Source: Bacteroidota bacterium
GTDB lineage: Bacteria; Bacteroidota; Bacteroidia; Chitinophagales; Chitinophagaceae
DNA: 37,994 bases
Direction: 5' to 3'
Assembly (NCBI GenBank): GCA_005883765.1
Contig: VBAQ01000149.1
Coordinates: 1-37,994, forward strand
The translations under genes and the position numbers were made by a program. A model generated the notes under the pieces. The model was not told the DNA's origin. It saw only the letters and a list, made by a program, of their open reading frames with translations, and ran no database searches. Of the stretch, positions 23,453 to 37,669 are shown piece after piece; the first letter of the stretch is position 1; each line of letters begins with the position of its first letter.

Positions 23453-26400
23453 TCATTCTGCGTGTAATGTTTCTAGCTGTTCATGGCTCACCATTTTGTC
23501 CTTAATTCCAAGCTCTTCGTCCAGGTCGAGTTTTTTCTTTTTTGAAGATAAGAAAGTATATAAAGCGGGTACAACAAACAAGGTCAGTACAAGGGCAAAC
23601 AACAGCCCTCCCACAATGACGACCCCCAATGGAATGCGGCTCTTCCCTGCTGAGCCGACTGCCAATGCGATGGGCAATGCACCCAACGTTGTTGCCAAAG
23701 TGGTCATCAATATGGGTCGCAGACGTGCGGCTGCCGCGTCGACGGCGGCAGAAAATTTTTGTTCACCCCGTCTTCGTTTCTGATTTGCGAATTCAACGAT
23801 CAGGATACCGTTCTTTGTCACCAATCCAATGAGCATGATGATACCTATTTCAGAAAATATATTTAACGTTTGCCCAAATACTTTCAACGTCAAAACGGCT
23901 CCCGCAAGCGCCAGGGGCACCGTGATCATGATGATAAATGGATCAAGAAAACTTTCGAATTGCGCGGACAGAATAAGAAAGATCAGGCCCAATGCCAGGA
24001 AAAAGGCGAAAGCCGTGTTGGATGAACTTTCGGCAAAATCTCGCGAGGCTCCACTTAAGGACGTTGCAAAAGATTCATCCAAAACTCTATCGGCAATTCG
24101 CTGCATTTCTGCAATGCCATCGCCAATAGTTTTGCCGGGGACCAGGCCGGCTGCAACAGTAGCGCTCTTAAAGCGATTAAAATGATAGATGGTGGGCGGA
24201 TTGGCTGTCTCAACCATGTTTACCAAATTATCAAGTTGAATCAGCTCGCCTTTATTATTTCTTACGTAGAACGATTTTAAATCCAATGGGTCATCACGCT
24301 GACTCCGGTCTACCTGGGCTATGACCTGGTATTGTTTTCCATTCATGATGAAATATCCAAAACGACGACCACTCAATGCCAACTGCAAAGTGTTATTTAC
24401 ATCGAGAACAGAAACGCCAAGCTGATTTGCTTTTAACCGGTCAATGGTAATTTGTAATTCCGGTTGATTGAATTTCAGATTTACATCTGAGCCCTGGAAA
24501 ATGGGACTTTTTCTAACCTCTTCCAGAAACTGTGGAACTTTTTCTTTGAGCTTATCGAAATTCAGATTCTGTAAGACAAATTGTACAGGAAAAGAGCCGC
24601 GTCCGCCAAGTCCTACCGAAATGGTTTGTTCCTGTATAGCAAACGCCCTCACATTTGTATACTTGCGAAACATTCCTGTCATTTGCTGTGTGATCTGATC
24701 CTGGGACCGATGCCGCTGGCTTGCATCCACCAATCCCATGCTGATGAATGCAGCATTGCTTCCGCCCCCTCCAAAGCCGGGTGCAAAAGTGTACACTGCC
24801 TCTTTTTCAGGGACTGAGTCCATCAGCTGCTGACCAATATTGTAGGCCACTTTATCTGTATAATCAAAATCCGCACCCTCAGGTCCGGTGATCGACACAC
24901 GTATGCGATTGCGATCTTCTAAGGGAGCGAGTTCAGAAGGAAGGCTCGTTCCTATGAAATAAATGATGCCAGCGCAGACAAGAATGATCACAAAGGCCAA
25001 CCATCGCATTCTCATAAATCCCTGCAGGGCTCTGCGATACCCGCTTTCCATGCCGGCAAAGAAAGGTTCTGTTTTGCGGTAGAACCAGGAGTGCTTTGAT
25101 GGATCTTTTTTTGACATGTAAATATTCAGTACAGGAGTAAGAGACAAAGAGACAAACGCCGAAATTAACACCGCACCCGCCAGCACCATACCAAATTCAC
25201 GAAACAGGCGGCCTACAAAACCCTGCAGAAAAATGATCGGCAGGAAAACAACGGCCAGTGTCAGGGACGTAGCAATAACAGCAAAATAAATTTCTTTGGA
25301 ACCTTCCAGGGCAGCTTTGCGTTTGTTCATCCCGAGTTCCATTTTCTTGAAAATATTTTCTGTTACCACAATGCCATCGTCAACGACCAGGCCTGTAGCA
25401 AGCACGATGGCCAGCAGCGTGAGCACATTTATCGAAAACCCTGAAATGTACATGATGAAAAATGCGCCGATGAGTGAAACAGGAATATCAATGAGCGGTC
25501 TGAAAGCAATGGTCCATTCGCGAAAGAAGAGAAAAATGATCATCACAACCAGTCCAATGGCTATCGCAAGGGTTTCTTTTACTTCAGTGACCGCCTTACG
25601 AACGAATTGAGTTCTGTCATAACCCACATTCATTGTCATATCAGCGGGCATATCCTTTTTTATCTGCCCCAGGCGCTTGTATACTTCATCGGCAATAGCT
25701 ATTTGGTTGCTTCCTGGTTGAGCCACGATAGCAAGGAACACGGCTGATGCATTATTCTTACGTGCAGAAGCCTCCTCATTTTCTTGTCCCAGCTCAGCAG
25801 TGCCCACATCCTTCAGCCTGACCACGCCACTACTGTCTTCATGCAAGATCAAGTTATTGAAGTCTTCTTCTGTTGTGAGCTTGCCATACGTCTTAACGAT
25901 GAGTTGCGTTTCATTTCCTCTCACTTTTCCGCCAGGCAATTCTATATTTTCTTTGTTGAGGGCATTTTGTATATCGGTGAACGTAAGTCGGTACGAATTG
26001 AGTTTTTCCGGATCGATCCACAAGCGCATCGAATATCGCCTGCCGAACACACTGACCGAGCTTACACCAGGAATAGTTTGTAAACGCTCCTGCACGACGT
26101 TCTCTGCAAAGTCTGTCAGTTGCATCAGGCCTTTCTTCTCACTTTGAAGAGGAATAAAAAGAATCGGATCGGAATCCGCATCCGCTTTGGTTACAATAGG
26201 AGGGGCGTCTATATCCTGGGGCAAATTGCCCAGGGCCTGCGATACCTTGTCACGAACATCATTAGCCGCCTGCTCGAGATCAAATCCCAATTCAAATTCA
26301 ACAGTGATTGCACTTGCTCCCTGCTGGCTGGACGAGGTAATATTCTTTACACCTTGCACACCATTGATGGATTTTTCAAGTGGTTCCGTGATCTGCTGCT

Positions 26401-26578
26401 CGATAATATCTGCATTGGCGCCTATGTAAGAAGTACGCACATTCACTACAGCGGGGTCAATGGCAGGATACTCTCTTACGCCCAGGAAAGTATAACCAAT
26501 CACTCCAAATATGATGATTATGATCGAGCAAACAATTGCCAGCACTGGCCTTCGTAAACTGAGTTCTGATAAATTCAT
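23453..26578 (-). CDS. RND efflux transporter permease (AcrB/HAE1-like)
   Basis: The 1041-residue inner-membrane pump subunit begins MNLSELSLRRPVLAIVCSI, the usual RND start. It has 12 membrane helices in two blocks split by large periplasmic loops. The proton-relay aspartates appear in LATGLVVDDGIVVTENIF (helix 4), and LVTKNGILIVEFANQKR marks helix 10-11. It would export drugs or other hydrophobic compounds with the adaptor and TolC using the proton gradient. Start ATG 26578 is chosen; the 17 codons upstream in frame are made by a heptamer array. A short charged tail follows the last helix. Confidence 0.95.
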   Translation of the reverse strand: MNLSELSLRRPVLAIVCSIIIIIFGVIGYTFLGVREYPAIDPAVVNVRTSYIGANADIIEQQITEPLEKSINGVQGVKNITSSSQQGASAITVEFELGFDLEQAANDVRDKVSQALGNLPQDIDAPPIVTKADADSDPILFIPLQSEKKGLMQLTDFAENVVQERLQTIPGVSSVSVFGRRYSMRLWIDPEKLNSYRLTFTDIQNALNKENIELPGGKVRGNETQLIVKTYGKLTTEEDFNNLILHEDSSGVVRLKDVGTAELGQENEEASARKNNASAVFLAIVAQPGSNQIAIADEVYKRLGQIKKDMPADMTMNVGYDRTQFVRKAVTEVKETLAIAIGLVVMIIFLFFREWTIAFRPLIDIPVSLIGAFFIMYISGFSINVLTLLAIVLATGLVVDDGIVVTENIFKKMELGMNKRKAALEGSKEIYFAVIATSLTLAVVFLPIIFLQGFVGRLFREFGMVLAGAVLISAFVSLSLTPVLNIYMSKKDPSKHSWFYRKTEPFFAGMESGYRRALQGFMRMRWLAFVIILVCAGIIYFIGTSLPSELAPLEDRNRIRVSITGPEGADFDYTDKVAYNIGQQLMDSVPEKEAVYTFAPGFGGGGSNAAFISMGLVDASQRHRSQDQITQQMTGMFRKYTNVRAFAIQEQTISVGLGGRGSFPVQFVLQNLNFDKLKEKVPQFLEEVRKSPIFQGSDVNLKFNQPELQITIDRLKANQLGVSVLDVNNTLQLALSGRRFGYFIMNGKQYQVIAQVDRSQRDDPLDLKSFYVRNNKGELIQLDNLVNMVETANPPTIYHFNRFKSATVAAGLVPGKTIGDGIAEMQRIADRVLDESFATSLSGASRDFAESSSNTAFAFFLALGLIFLILSAQFESFLDPFIIMITVPLALAGAVLTLKVFGQTLNIFSEIGIIMLIGLVTKNGILIVEFANQKRRRGEQKFSAAVDAAAARLRPILMTTLATTLGALPIALAVGSAGKSRIPLGVVIVGGLLFALVLTLFVVPALYTFLSSKKKKLDLDEELGIKDKMVSHEQLETLHAE

Positions 26579-26580
26579 AT

Positions 26581-26608
26581 TGTGAGTTGTGAGTGCTGAG
26601 TTGTGAGT
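26581..26608 (-). repeat. Heptamer array, left edge of S23 cassette
   Basis: Four perfect-register 7-nt units on the plus strand: TGTGAGT, TGTGAGT, GCTGAGT, TGTGAGT. The array ends 2 nt from the start codon of the RND pump gene and would lie in the pump's ribosome-binding region. Confidence 0.85.
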
Positions 26609-26618
26609 AATGAAAATG

Positions 26619-26972
26619 CTACTTGTCAATCATACCGCTCAGCAATTTGAATGTTTTTATAATATTTTCACCAAGGACCTGCAACTGTTCCAGGCTTACA
26701 TAACTTAACTTATATGCAATGCCAATCGCAGCATCTATTTCAATCACAGACCCCCTCGCGATTTCATAAAATCTTGTTCTATGACCTTTCGACTTTCCGG
26801 AGCACCCCTCCGCAATATTCAAATGCACTGATAAAGCAGCTCTCCTGATTTGTTGAACCATTGCAAATTGTTCTGAATCGGGTAATAGCTTTGTTATTTT
26901 ATAACATTCTATTCCGAGTTCCTGAGAGAATTTGAAAACGTCAAGTTTTGTATGAGCAAGCTGTAAAAACAT
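26619..26972 (-). CDS. Four-helix bundle protein, S23/IVP family
   Basis: This 117-residue protein matches the small four-helix-bundle family first found in 23S rRNA intervening sequences and related to the Avd accessory protein of diversity-generating retroelements. The signatures are KLDVFKFSQELGIECYKITKLLP at the N-terminus, QIRRAALSVHLNIAEGCSGKS in the middle and FYEIARGSVIEIDAAIGIAYKL. Members are basic and bind nucleic acid, at least in the Avd case; the role of this group is not known. It sits inside an efflux operon to which it has no obvious relation, and I see no reverse transcriptase or variable repeat in the window. Confidence 0.88.
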   Translation of the reverse strand: MFLQLAHTKLDVFKFSQELGIECYKITKLLPDSEQFAMVQQIRRAALSVHLNIAEGCSGKSKGHRTRFYEIARGSVIEIDAAIGIAYKLSYVSLEQLQVLGENIIKTFKLLSGMIDK

Positions 26973-27003
26973 ATAACAAGGTTTAAGGTTACCGCTTCAA
27001 TTC

Positions 27004-27024
27004 ACTCACCACTCACCATTCACT
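27004..27024 (+). repeat. Heptamer array, right edge of S23 cassette
   Basis: Three 7-nt units, ACTCACC, ACTCACC, ATTCACT, in the orientation opposite to the array at 26581-26608. The last unit overlaps the stop codon of the adaptor gene (27020-27022). Confidence 0.8.
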
Positions 27025-28111
27025 TACCCATCTTTGATAACGTTACGTCGCTACCGGGACGAAGGAACAACAAGCCCGACGTGATCAGGGTATCTCCGGG
27101 GAATAGGCCGGATAATACCTGGACGTTGGCGGAATCGCGTACGCCGGTAGTGATCTCCATGGGAAGAGCCTTGTTGCTTTTAAAAACAAAGACCTGTTTT
27201 TTTCTTCCCTGTGGTATTACAGCGCCATTTGGTATCATGATCGCGTTCGGATTGTTTCCAAGGATCATCTTCACATTTGCAAAGGTCCCCGGTATCAATG
27301 CAGGATCAGTGTTCTTTACCAATGCTCTTACGGTAAGACTCCTGGTGTCTTCACCTATTGACGTTTCGGTAGCAATGACATTGGCAGAAAAAGTTTTTTC
27401 AGAACCATTCAGTGTAAATGAGACCACTTGTCCATTTTTTATTTCCGATCCATATTTTTCTGGTACACTGAACTGAAGCTTCAGTTTATTGACCTCACTA
27501 ATAGTTGTCACAACGGTTGAAGGAGTGACAAAGGCTCCAGGGCTGATATATTTCAAACCCAGCTTACCGCTGAATGGAGCCCTGATTTCTGTTTTTGTAA
27601 TATTGGCTCTTGTAATTTCAATATCTGCTTTAATGTTATTCACGTTTAAAGCGCTGGCATCATAATCGGCCTTGCTGATGCCCTGGATCTTTAATAATTG
27701 CGCCGAGCGCTCTTCATTTGTTTTTGCAATTTCCAATTGCACCTGAAGTTTCCTCAGTTGCCCCTGCAGATCGCCATCGTAGATCTTAGCCAGCAAAGCG
27801 CCTTTGCTAACGAACTTGCCTTCGGCAACATTCAATTGGACCAGTCGACCGGATATCTCAGGATGTATCTCCGTGGTTTCATTGGCCATCAGGCTTCCTG
27901 AGATCTCAATTCTTTCATTAATGAGCGTAGGGTTGACTACAAAAATATCAACGGCCATGGGTGGCTGCTTTGCGCCGGCCATGCCCGCGGGTCCGGCCGG
28001 TGTACCGGAAGATGCTGTTTGGCTGGTAGTTTTTTTGTCCGAGCTGCCACAAGCGGATAGAACAAATAGAACAATTCCTGTCAGAAAAAAATTGAATGGT
28101 TGAAGTCTCAC
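27020..28111 (-). CDS. RND efflux periplasmic adaptor (membrane fusion protein)
   Basis: The 363-residue lipoprotein has a signal with lipobox LSACGS (Cys21) and then the adaptor layout: a barrel-sandwich half (VAEGKFVSKGALLAKIYDGDL), an alpha-helical hairpin rich in Lys, Gln and Glu, the second half (TEIRAPFSGKLGLKYISPGAFV), a beta barrel, and a membrane-proximal domain ending VQVLSGLFPGDTLITSGLLFLRPGSDV. It bridges the RND pump and TolC in the periplasm. It is the first gene of the operon, with a good promoter upstream. Its stop codon is overlapped by the cassette's heptamer array. Confidence 0.94.
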   Translation of the reverse strand: MRLQPFNFFLTGIVLFVLSACGSSDKKTTSQTASSGTPAGPAGMAGAKQPPMAVDIFVVNPTLINERIEISGSLMANETTEIHPEISGRLVQLNVAEGKFVSKGALLAKIYDGDLQGQLRKLQVQLEIAKTNEERSAQLLKIQGISKADYDASALNVNNIKADIEITRANITKTEIRAPFSGKLGLKYISPGAFVTPSTVVTTISEVNKLKLQFSVPEKYGSEIKNGQVVSFTLNGSEKTFSANVIATETSIGEDTRSLTVRALVKNTDPALIPGTFANVKMILGNNPNAIMIPNGAVIPQGRKKQVFVFKSNKALPMEITTGVRDSANVQVLSGLFPGDTLITSGLLFLRPGSDVTLSKMGK

Positions 28112-36796: not shown

Positions 36797-37627
36797 ATGC
36801 AAATACGATTTACAACGAGTCCCAAAGAAACTGCAGCAATGAACACACAAGAATTGCGGAGCAATTTTCTTGTTGAAAATTTAATGGTGGATGATGAGGT
36901 GAAACTCGTGTATTCACACTATGACCGTGTAATTATTGGTGGCGCCAAACCAGTCAATAAAGTATTAGAATTATCAGCCCATTCTGAATTAAAAGCAGAT
37001 TATTTTTTGGAAAGAAGAGAAATTGGGATCATCAATATTGGTGGAGCAGGCATAGTGGGAGCCGACGATGAAAGTTTTTCTTTAAATAAATTAGATTGTG
37101 TTTACCTCGGTAAGGGGATTCGAAAGGTTTCATTTAAGGCCGATGATCCTTCGGTTCCCGCGGTGTTTTATTTTCTGTCAGTCCCCGCACATGCCACGCA
37201 TTCAAATCATCTAATGAAAAAAGAAGAAGCTTCGCCGGTGACCATTGGTGACACAAAAACAGCCAATCATCGCACTATTTACAAATACATTCATGCGGAC
37301 GGAATAAAAAGCTGCCAGTTAGTAATGGGTCTCACCGTTCTGGGAGTAGGAAGTGTCTGGAATACCATGCCCGCGCACACTCATACGCGCAGGACCGAAA
37401 TGTATTTTTATTTCGAAGTTGCTGCCGAGCATCGCGTTATTCATTTAATGGGTCAGCCGCAGGAGACAAGACATTTGATTGTCGCCAATCATGAAGCCGT
37501 TATTTCACCACCGTGGTCGATACATGCAGGTTGTGGGACCTCCAACTATTCATTTATCTGGGCAATGGCTGGGGAAAATTATAATTACACCGACATGGAT
37601 GCTGTGACAATACGTGAGTTAAAATGA
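36797..37627 (+). CDS. kduI: 5-dehydro-4-deoxy-D-glucuronate isomerase
   Basis: The 276-residue protein aligns with E. coli KduI (278 residues) over its length. It shares ELRSNFLVENL, YSHYDRVIIGG, YFLERREIGIINIGGAG, MGLTVLG...WNTMPAHTH.RR.EMYFYF, MGQPQETRH and SPPWSIHAG. The metal ligands are in PAHTHTRRTE and WSIH. It isomerises 4-deoxy-5-ketouronate to 2,5-diketo-3-deoxygluconate, the step before KduD. I start at ATG 36797 to match the E. coli length; the open frame begins 10 codons earlier inside the repeat. A heptamer array follows the stop directly. Confidence 0.94.
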   Translation: MQIRFTTSPKETAAMNTQELRSNFLVENLMVDDEVKLVYSHYDRVIIGGAKPVNKVLELSAHSELKADYFLERREIGIINIGGAGIVGADDESFSLNKLDCVYLGKGIRKVSFKADDPSVPAVFYFLSVPAHATHSNHLMKKEEASPVTIGDTKTANHRTIYKYIHADGIKSCQLVMGLTVLGVGSVWNTMPAHTHTRRTEMYFYFEVAAEHRVIHLMGQPQETRHLIVANHEAVISPPWSIHAGCGTSNYSFIWAMAGENYNYTDMDAVTIRELK

Positions 37628-37669
37628 GCAATGGGCAATGGGCTGTAGGCAGTAGGCAATGGGCAATTC
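37628..37669 (+). repeat. Heptamer array directly after kduI
   Basis: Six 7-nt units in perfect register: GCAATGG, GCAATGG, GCTGTAG, GCAGTAG, GCAATGG, GCAATTC. The first base follows the kduI stop codon (37625-37627). Confidence 0.85.

What the first reader, a model, noticed from the sequence alone, without database searches (positions are those of the whole stretch)
26579..27024. S23-like gene enclosed by inverted heptamer arrays, set exactly between the pump and adaptor genes
Seen: the 441 nt between the adaptor stop codon and the RND start codon hold only a 117-residue four-helix-bundle (S23/IVP) gene. At one edge are four TGTGAGT-type heptamers; at the other, three ACTCACC-type heptamers in opposite orientation. 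Known: S23 genes were first described in 23S rRNA intervening sequences whose ends pair with each other, and relatives serve diversity-generating retroelements. Inference: this may be an insertion unit of the same kind living in a protein operon, with an mRNA stem around the gene that could be cut or could uncouple pump and adaptor translation.
Basis: partly seen in the sequence, partly recalled or inferred. Interest (0 to 1): 0.68.

Follow-up and report, generated by a model that had tools for sequence, protein, structure and literature searches.

The report
S23 gene with matching heptad-array ends
A small gene of unknown function sits between two bacterial pump genes as a unit framed by mirrored seven-letter repeats; the same kind of unit recurs in many bacterial phyla, and in the one family surveyed the genomes with this type of gene are mostly the ones with scattered copies of its repeat, which points to an overlooked kind of mobile element.

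Summary
Confirmed and extended. The 441-nt adaptor-pump spacer holds one S23/IVP gene (PF05635) between inverted period-7 arrays. By eye, all 13 Pfam-detected S23 genes of this genome have such arms (period 8 in one), each with its own heptamer; the two arms of a gene match each other (mean 22.2 against 12.8 for re-paired arms, 0 of 10,000 permutations). The rule holds in sets of 76 loci (own genome and relatives) and 79 named loci from many phyla; random segments rarely show it.

Heptamer similarity follows S23 similarity at unrelated sites (Mantel r 0.25, 0 of 2000). Arrays are frequent in most S23-bearing genomes sampled and nearly absent from five without S23. GTGA-type arrays occur in 35 of 38 genomes with window-type S23, 17 of 60 with only weaker S23 hits, 4 of 49 with no hit. 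Reverse transcriptases and Y1 transposases explain this far less well. Homologous pump junctions are empty, decayed, or hold other arrays.

Best reading: an IVS-like insertion unit outside rRNA whose S23 protein recognises cognate heptad arrays and spreads or maintains them. Mobility is inferred; the chemistry is unknown. Arm mismatches show no RNA wobble bias. A regulator with heptad binding sites is the main rival.

The parts
26579..27024 (-). the whole S23/heptad-array unit between adaptor stop and pump start
   Evidence: spacer of 441 nt against 6-30 nt in 13 of 23 homologous junctions
27000..27028 (-). 5' arm (S23 sense): heptads of GGTGAGT/GGTGAAT type, overlapping the adaptor stop codon at 27020-27022
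   Evidence: inverted match to 26580-26608
26619..26972 (-). S23/IVP four-helix-bundle gene, 117 aa
   Evidence: PF05635 95.3 bits; a profile of 15 S23 proteins including this one hits PDB 2gsc (XCC0516) at E 1.8e-31; lone-sequence AlphaFold2 model has four helices, mean pLDDT 65
26580..26608 (+). 3' arm: four TGTGAGT-type heptads on the + strand, inverted to the 5' arm, ending 1 nt before the pump ATG
   Evidence: period-7 array, 17 of 21
23453..26578 (-). RND pump (ACR_tran), host gene downstream
   Evidence: start ATG at 26578
27020..28111 (-). membrane-fusion adaptor (HlyD_D23), host gene upstream; its stop codon lies in the array
37623..37668 (+). further GGGCAAT-type array at the end of another gene; best match among own S23 arms is to a different unit of this genome (L005, contig C303)
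   Evidence: alignment score 25 to L005 arms

Best explanation
The S23 gene and its two inverted heptad arrays are one insertion unit, related to the S23-bearing intervening sequences of 23S rRNA but sitting between protein genes. Both ends carry the same heptads reading inward on the C-poor strand. The S23 protein, whose family includes a pentameric ring of four-helix bundles, most likely binds the cognate heptads (perhaps one unit per subunit) and thereby causes copies of the ends to be made or kept elsewhere: with the gene (a full unit) or without it (hairpins and arrays). It is read through from the host operon. When S23 decays, arrays remain as relics. Shown by computation: the unit, the matching arms, heptamers that follow S23 similarity, association of dispersed arrays with S23 presence, empty junctions, decayed copies. 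Inferred: binding, read-through expression, mobility in trans. Unknown: which enzymes cut and join, and whether the substrate is DNA or RNA.
For: Arms of each unit match each other: 13 own loci, 76 family/order loci, 79 loci of many phyla, each 0 of 10,000 permutations. Period 7 and some 8: in 76 loci, windows of 15 or more in 21 upstream at period 7 in 35, at 8 in 12, at most 1 at other periods from 5 to 13 (14 is the double of 7); in 79 wide loci 44 upstream and 59 downstream at period 7. Array similarity follows S23 similarity between genomes with non-homologous flanks, in fixed orientation: Mantel r 0.254, 0 of 2000, against -0.152 for reversed arrays. Arrays: 1 in 400 kb of five S23-free genomes against 43 period-7 and 11 period-8 in 400 kb of five S23-bearing ones. 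GTGA arrays (4 or more hits): 35 of 38, 17 of 60, 4 of 49. Arrays of G000 match own S23 arms better than those of G005 or G008 (p 0.0003, 0.0004). RT presence: p 0.27; genomes with 366 and 248 array hits have neither RT nor Y1 at E 1e-8. Homologous junctions are empty, hold relics, or hold other arrays. PF13366 loci as control: 0 of 18 with period-7 windows. Coxiella's rRNA IVS also has GACAGAT heptads before S23 (PMC4990558, passages).
Against: No transposition was observed; no target duplication or exact boundary could be defined. I know of no catalytic residues in S23. 12 of 76 and 9 of 79 S23 loci score under 16 for their arms. One S23-bearing genome sampled (G031) had no arrays in 80 kb and G014 only two. 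Three genomes with window-type S23 lack GTGA arrays (G059, G133, G147), and four without a hit to the window S23 have them, G102 with 286 but an equally high reversed-pattern control. Own-arm preference of arrays was not significant in G005 against G000 (p 0.16) or in G008 (7 arrays). The GGATG test was thin: 5 of 147 genomes with 4 or more hits, two of them the genomes with the closest S23. Y1_Tnp presence correlates weakly with arrays (p 0.0019). The Thiohalocapsa heptamer also hits genomes whose own S23 has another heptamer, six times in one. Arrays also frame an ordinary gene, rpsI. Shared descent of gene and arms could give the clade-heptamer match without recognition.
Confidence: 0.6

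Rival explanations
1. S23 is a ring-shaped nucleic-acid-binding regulator (in the manner of TRAP, recalled) and the arrays are its binding sites in mRNA leaders and trailers. Arrays next to its own gene are autoregulatory sites; the rest are its regulon. Spread would be by host selection, not by selfish mobility.
For: Arrays at S23 units sit between stop and start codons; the 5' arm is C-poor (10.8% C, 25.2% G), like an unstructured single-strand site; GTGA arrays go with the matching S23; pentameric relative (2gsc; oligomer as told in the introduction of PMC4990558). Similar heptads in Beggiatoaceae were proposed to act in translational regulation (PMC4679880, passages).
Against: The homologous pump junction is empty in 13 of 23 genomes and holds different heptamers or S23 relics in others; arrays lie in frame inside a valS gene; up to 1004 pattern hits in a 3.7-Mb genome; a fixed regulon would not be expected to vary so.
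Confidence: 0.2
2. The hairpin arrays are the mobile or self-expanding entity, made by host replication or repair (slippage, snap-back copying), and the S23 gene is passive cargo carried between two arms.
For: Arrays outnumber S23 genes (23 in 191 kb of G000 against 13 S23 genes in 4.67 Mb); units expand (about 12 units at the L010 site in G001); no known catalytic motif in S23; other small ORFs (PF13366) sit between other inverted ends.
Against: Arrays are almost absent from the S23-free genomes sampled and go with the S23 type; period 7 is not seen around PF13366 genes (0 of 18).
Confidence: 0.15
3. One reading: an mRNA intervening sequence whose stem is cut (by RNase III in the rRNA case) and separates adaptor and pump messages.
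For: The predicted RNA closes the arms around the gene (MFE -120.4, z -2.49); sense orientation 57 to 6 between co-directional genes; the rRNA IVS of Coxiella is cut by RNase III (PMC4990558, abstract).
Against: No G-U over A-C excess in arm mismatches (148 against 177, p 0.12); arms here are shorter and more mismatched than the 28-bp stem told for Coxiella; does not explain dispersed arrays.
Confidence: 0.05

Closest known systems
S23-bearing intervening sequences (IVS) of 23S rRNA (Leptospira, Coxiella)
   Same: S23/IVP gene between terminal inverted repeats; Coxiella's has tandem GACAGAT heptads before S23 (PMC4990558, introduction and passages)
   Different: here between protein genes, many copies per genome, each with its own heptamer, plus dispersed gene-less arrays
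REPIN/RAYT elements
   Same: a gene next to its own repeat type, with many dispersed hairpins of the same type and proposed co-evolution (PMC3116915, passages)
   Different: units are 7-nt tandem arrays, not single palindromes; S23 is no Y1 transposase; array-rich genomes without Y1 at E 1e-8 exist
Heptad repeats of unknown origin: GGGAATC in Xanthomonas and GGGGA(T/C)T in Nostoc; TAACTGA in Beggiatoaceae, cyanobacteria and Bacteroidota
   Same: period 7, largely intergenic; for Xanthomonas and Nostoc between aligned ORFs, mostly sense just after a stop or antisense just before a start, with 70 and 75 convergent pairs in Xcc and Xac (PMC4692102 abstract, one section, passages; PMC4679880 passages)
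   Different: neither text links them to S23 as far as searched: 's23' 0 times in PMC4679880, 'xcc0516' and '23s' 0 times in PMC4692102; 13 plasmid S23 loci (12 cyanobacterial) show period-7 windows upstream in 10 and downstream in 8
Avd of diversity-generating retroelements
   Same: homologous protein fold (PMC10053308, passages; its pentameric state is recalled)
   Different: array-rich G022, G044, G009 and G004 lack RVT_1 at E 1e-8

Membership tests
23S/16S rRNA intervening sequence (IVS) | encodes an S23/IVP ORF (ORF-bearing subtype) | tested here: met
   PF05635 95.3 bits
23S/16S rRNA intervening sequence (IVS) | complementary termini that close a stem | tested here: met
   20 nt at 85%; RNA fold closes the arms, z -2.49
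23S/16S rRNA intervening sequence (IVS) | located inside an rRNA gene | tested here: not met
   lies between adaptor and RND genes; no Rfam match at 26300-27300
23S/16S rRNA intervening sequence (IVS) | excised from RNA by RNase III without religation | not testable with these tools
   needs RNA-end mapping
REPIN/RAYT | gene flanked by cognate inverted repeats that also occur dispersed as hairpins | tested here: met
   18 of 62 sampled arrays have an inverted mate; association with S23 type; own-arm preference in G000, weak or absent in G005 and G008
REPIN/RAYT | flanked gene is a Y1 (HUH) transposase | tested here: not met
   gene is PF05635; Y1_Tnp absent at E 1e-8 from array-rich G009, G004, G001
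Diversity-generating retroelement | reverse transcriptase with TR/VR pair | tested here: not met
   no RT among the five window genes scanned; RT presence not associated with arrays over 147 genomes (p 0.27); TR/VR not searched
Classical IS / MITE | fixed terminal inverted repeats and target-site duplication | tested here: inconclusive
   ends are inverted but differ between copies; no duplication could be defined because no closely related empty site was found

The most novel reading that the evidence does not exclude
S23 proteins are the specificity factors of a previously unrecognised class of mobile element found across many bacterial phyla: each S23 clade writes or spreads its own 7-nt (or 8-nt) tandem repeat as inverted ends, without transposase or reverse transcriptase of its own. 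The rRNA IVS, the cyanobacterial heptanucleotide repeats, the TAACTGA repeats and the Xanthomonas GGGAATC repeats would be products of one system.
Probability: 0.45. Interest if true: 0.95.

Novelty: new variant of a known kind. Interest (0 to 1): 0.85.

Why it matters
S23/IVP proteins have no known function (so told in PMC4990558), and the dispersed heptanucleotide repeats of several phyla have had no maker. A link between an S23 clade and its heptamer would give both a testable cause, would explain why S23 genes turn up inside cas, partition, respiratory and efflux operons, and would define a repeat-specific element with no known enzyme.

Tried and rejected
RNA-stem selection: the G-U against A-C test was flat. 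A reverse-transcriptase partner (PF00078) and a Y1 transposase partner (PF01797) do not explain the arrays as S23 does, though Y1 keeps a weak association. A general property of small genes: of 18 PF13366 (GxxExxY) loci (12 partial ones of the 30 returned were left out) none has a period-7 window, and of 132 small non-S23 ORFs 3 score 20 or more and 6 have period-7 windows in both flanks. Rfam: no match. Promoter/terminator scan: at background. The first random-segment control was spoiled by runs of N and redone without them. In some searches the downstream flank of L032 was misplaced; mended, which left the conclusions unchanged. The second heptamer test (GGATG) was too sparse to prove a double dissociation. 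The Xanthomonas prediction (XCC0516 framed by GGGAATC) could not be tested: no Xanthomonas genome was reached.

Full report
The adaptor stop (27020-27022) and the pump start (26578) leave 441 nt that carry one S23/IVP gene, 26619-26972 on the - strand, PF05635 with 95.3 bits. Four TGTGAGT-type heptads lie at 26580-26608 and about three ACTCACC-type heptads at 27000-27024. The upstream array runs over the adaptor's stop codon; in the same-genus genome G001 the adaptor ends with other codons (by reading).

This genome holds 14 PF05635 matches, which I read as 13 genes because two matches on contig C106 are halves of one frameshifted gene; two of the 14 are under the curated cut-off. By eye their flanks all show inverted arrays of period 7 (8 in L003), each with its own heptamer. 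Aligning each upstream flank to the reverse complement of each downstream flank gave 21.3 for true pairs and 11.1 for swapped pairs (max 18) with 180-nt flanks, and 22.2 against 12.8, 0 of 10,000 permutations, with 250-nt flanks. A further frameshifted S23-like gene, not reported by the Pfam search, lies in L150 230-677 between ACAAGGC-type arms (by reading).

Relatives: 31 of 39 genomes have PF05635. I analysed 76 loci: the 13 own ones, one from each of 25 relatives, and 38 from G001, G005, G008 and G011. L082 and L085 were dropped for short flanks, four loci were duplicates, and many further places listed were not fetched. The downstream flank of L032 was misplaced at first; the numbers here are the mended ones. 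True pairs average 21.8 against 12.4; none of 10,000 permutations reaches this; 35 of 76 exceed the 99th percentile of swapped pairs, 33 of 76 beat every other partner, and 12 of 76 score under 16 (L003, L019, L031, L037, L040, L078, L079, L083, L084, L086, L094, L097). Windows of 15 or more in 21 were found upstream in 35 loci at period 7, 12 at period 8 and at most 1 at other periods from 5 to 13; downstream in 44, 11 and at most 2; period 14, the double of 7, in 29 and 36. Orientation: 57 sense between co-directional genes, 6 antisense between co-directional genes, 10 mixed, 3 without a neighbour on one side; neighbours were picked by longest ORF, so some may be wrong.

Controls: of 1000 random 350-nt segments without N from stretches of S23-bearing genomes, 50 reach score 16, 6 reach 20, and 3 have period-7 windows in both flanks; of 132 small non-S23 ORFs, 12, 3 and 6. 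Of S23 loci 64 of 76 and 70 of 79 reach 16, 45 and 49 reach 20. PF13366 (GxxExxY) genes have inverted ends of another style in some cases, and 0 of 18 show a period-7 window.

In 79 loci the arms match (23.6 against 12.7 permuted, 0 of 10,000), with period-7 windows upstream in 44 and downstream in 59; 9 of 79 score under 16. Besides Bacteroidota, arms of score 20 or more occur in records titled Omnitrophica (L201), Bacillota (L222), Selenomonadales (L233), Clostridia (L249), Pyrinomonadaceae (L226), Kiritimatiellaeota (L236), Thiohalocapsa (L231), Deltaproteobacteria (L269), Alphaproteobacteria (L266) and Planctomycetota (L273); the Treponema locus (L228) is weak. Of 24 plasmid records with an S23 match I fetched 13, 12 of them cyanobacterial; period-7 windows lie upstream in 10 and downstream in 8 (the gene limits of the unannotated L335 were guessed). 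Of 11 viral contigs I looked at 8 and judged by eye that 5 have repeated arms.

Clade and heptamer: 67 of 76 loci had an arm and a protein good enough to type. Over 1960 pairs from different genomes without homologous flanks, array similarity rises with S23 similarity (Mantel r 0.254, permutation maximum 0.161, 0 of 2000), while reverse-oriented arrays give -0.152. The 11 closest protein pairs average 15.8 in array score against about 7 for distant ones. This fits transfer of gene and arms as a unit; it does not by itself prove recognition.

Dispersed arrays: in 80 kb from each of five genomes without PF05635, 1 period-7 array and no period-8 array was found in 400 kb; in five genomes with it, 43 and 11, although G031 had none and G014 two; G005 had 22 and 7 in 400 kb and G000 23 in 191 kb, part of which is N. 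Of 62 arrays in the G000, G005 and window sample, 18 have an inverted mate within 3 kb at score 18 or more, where shuffled arrays reach 14 at most. In 147 family genomes, three-unit GTGARNN arrays (4 or more hits) occur in 35 of 38 genomes with window-type S23 (best E at most 1e-19), 17 of 60 with only weaker hits and 4 of 49 with no hit to the window S23, some of which have other S23 genes; medians 31.5, 0.5 and 0. I chose the cut-offs after seeing the hit list, and no tree correction was made; the genomes come from 100 genera. In G000, 30 arrays (a few beside the S23 relic of L150) match own arms better than those of G005 (p 0.0003) or G008 (p 0.0004); in G005 (31) and G008 (7) the trend was weak or absent. 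In Thiohalocapsa the S23 heptamer recurs at a few other places, mostly on the same contig; of 12 other genomes 3 have hits too, one of them six.

Junction history: one search returned 30 pump loci; I used 27 (own included) and left out three at 30-35% identity. Only G001 (93%), G020 and G013 (76, 75%) are close, so the rest may not be orthologues. 4 of 27 have no adaptor hit. Of the other 23, 13 have spacers of at most 30 nt without arrays, 5 have period-7 arrays (own; G001 with the S23 tail and 3' arm only; G010 and G034 with other heptamers and no S23; G031 with an S23 N-terminal relic between its own arms), 4 have longer spacers without arrays, and 1 is masked (relics by reading). In G001 other own S23 sites hold a hairpin of another heptamer (L009 site), an S23 relic with an expanded array (L010 site), a PF13366 unit (L012 site), an unrelated repeat (L001 site), or S23 (L003 and L004 sites).

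Mechanism: both ends present the same C-poor heptads reading inward (C 10.8%, G 25.2% in the 5' arm), as the ends of a mobile unit bound by one protein would. The S23 relative XCC0516 is a pentamer (2gsc, E 1.8e-31; oligomer as told in the introduction of PMC4990558). That a ring might take about one heptad per subunit is my inference. Arrays (4 or more GTGA hits) go with window-type S23 (p 7e-16), weakly with Y1 transposase (83 of 147 genomes, p 0.0019) and not with RT (46 of 147, p 0.27); among the array-rich, G009 and G004 have neither enzyme. The mRNA stem is possible but not visibly selected.

Literature: nine searches of the held library showed in their listings no paper that ties S23 genes outside rRNA to heptad arrays; most subscription papers and bioRxiv preprints are not held. 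Closest are the Coxiella IVS paper with its heptads (PMC4990558; abstract, introduction, passages), the Xanthomonas/Nostoc heptad paper (PMC4692102; abstract, one section, passages), the TAACTGA paper (PMC4679880; passages) and a note of 18 IVP genes in cas loci (PMC3936711; passages). The older cyanobacterial STRR literature is recalled.

Noticed in passing
L137 4769-4836, 5503-5546, 6362-6396: Heptad arrays lie inside open frames of a valyl-tRNA synthetase gene (identified by eye) without introducing stops.
   Followed up: no
L128 10905-11431: Ribosomal protein S9 gene (by eye) framed by inverted AGCTATC-type arrays; ordinary genes can sit between matching arrays too.
   Followed up: no
L274 about 1700-2200 (G001 C122): The L012 junction holds a GxxExxY (PF13366) gene between CACGCAAAGGCGCAA inverted ends in the same-genus genome: a second cargo type with its own end style at the same site.
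   Followed up: partly
L333, L334, L337: S23 genes sit between cas6 and cas4 or between cas10/cmr2 and cmr3 on cyanobacterial plasmids; published IVP-CRISPR associations may simply be insertions.
   Followed up: partly
L004, L008, L340, L330: S23 units sit between parA-parB-like and nuoF-nuoG-like genes (by eye), beside a partition gene on a plasmid, and antisense between nrdB and nrdA, i.e. inside core operons.
   Followed up: no
L003, L074, L089, L103, L091, L105: By eye two S23 groups go with period-8 instead of period-7 arrays; one search typed 12 of 67 loci as period 8.
   Followed up: partly
G102: 286 GTGA-pattern hits without a hit to the window S23, but the reversed-pattern control is equally high (302), so its repeats may be of another kind.
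   Followed up: no
window 37623-37668: GGGCAAT-type array beginning near the stop codon of the gene that ends at 37627; its best match among own arms is the S23 unit on contig C303.
   Followed up: yes
L003, L005, L010, L093, L150: Several S23 copies are broken by stops or frameshifts while their arrays remain, as expected of decaying insertions.
   Followed up: no
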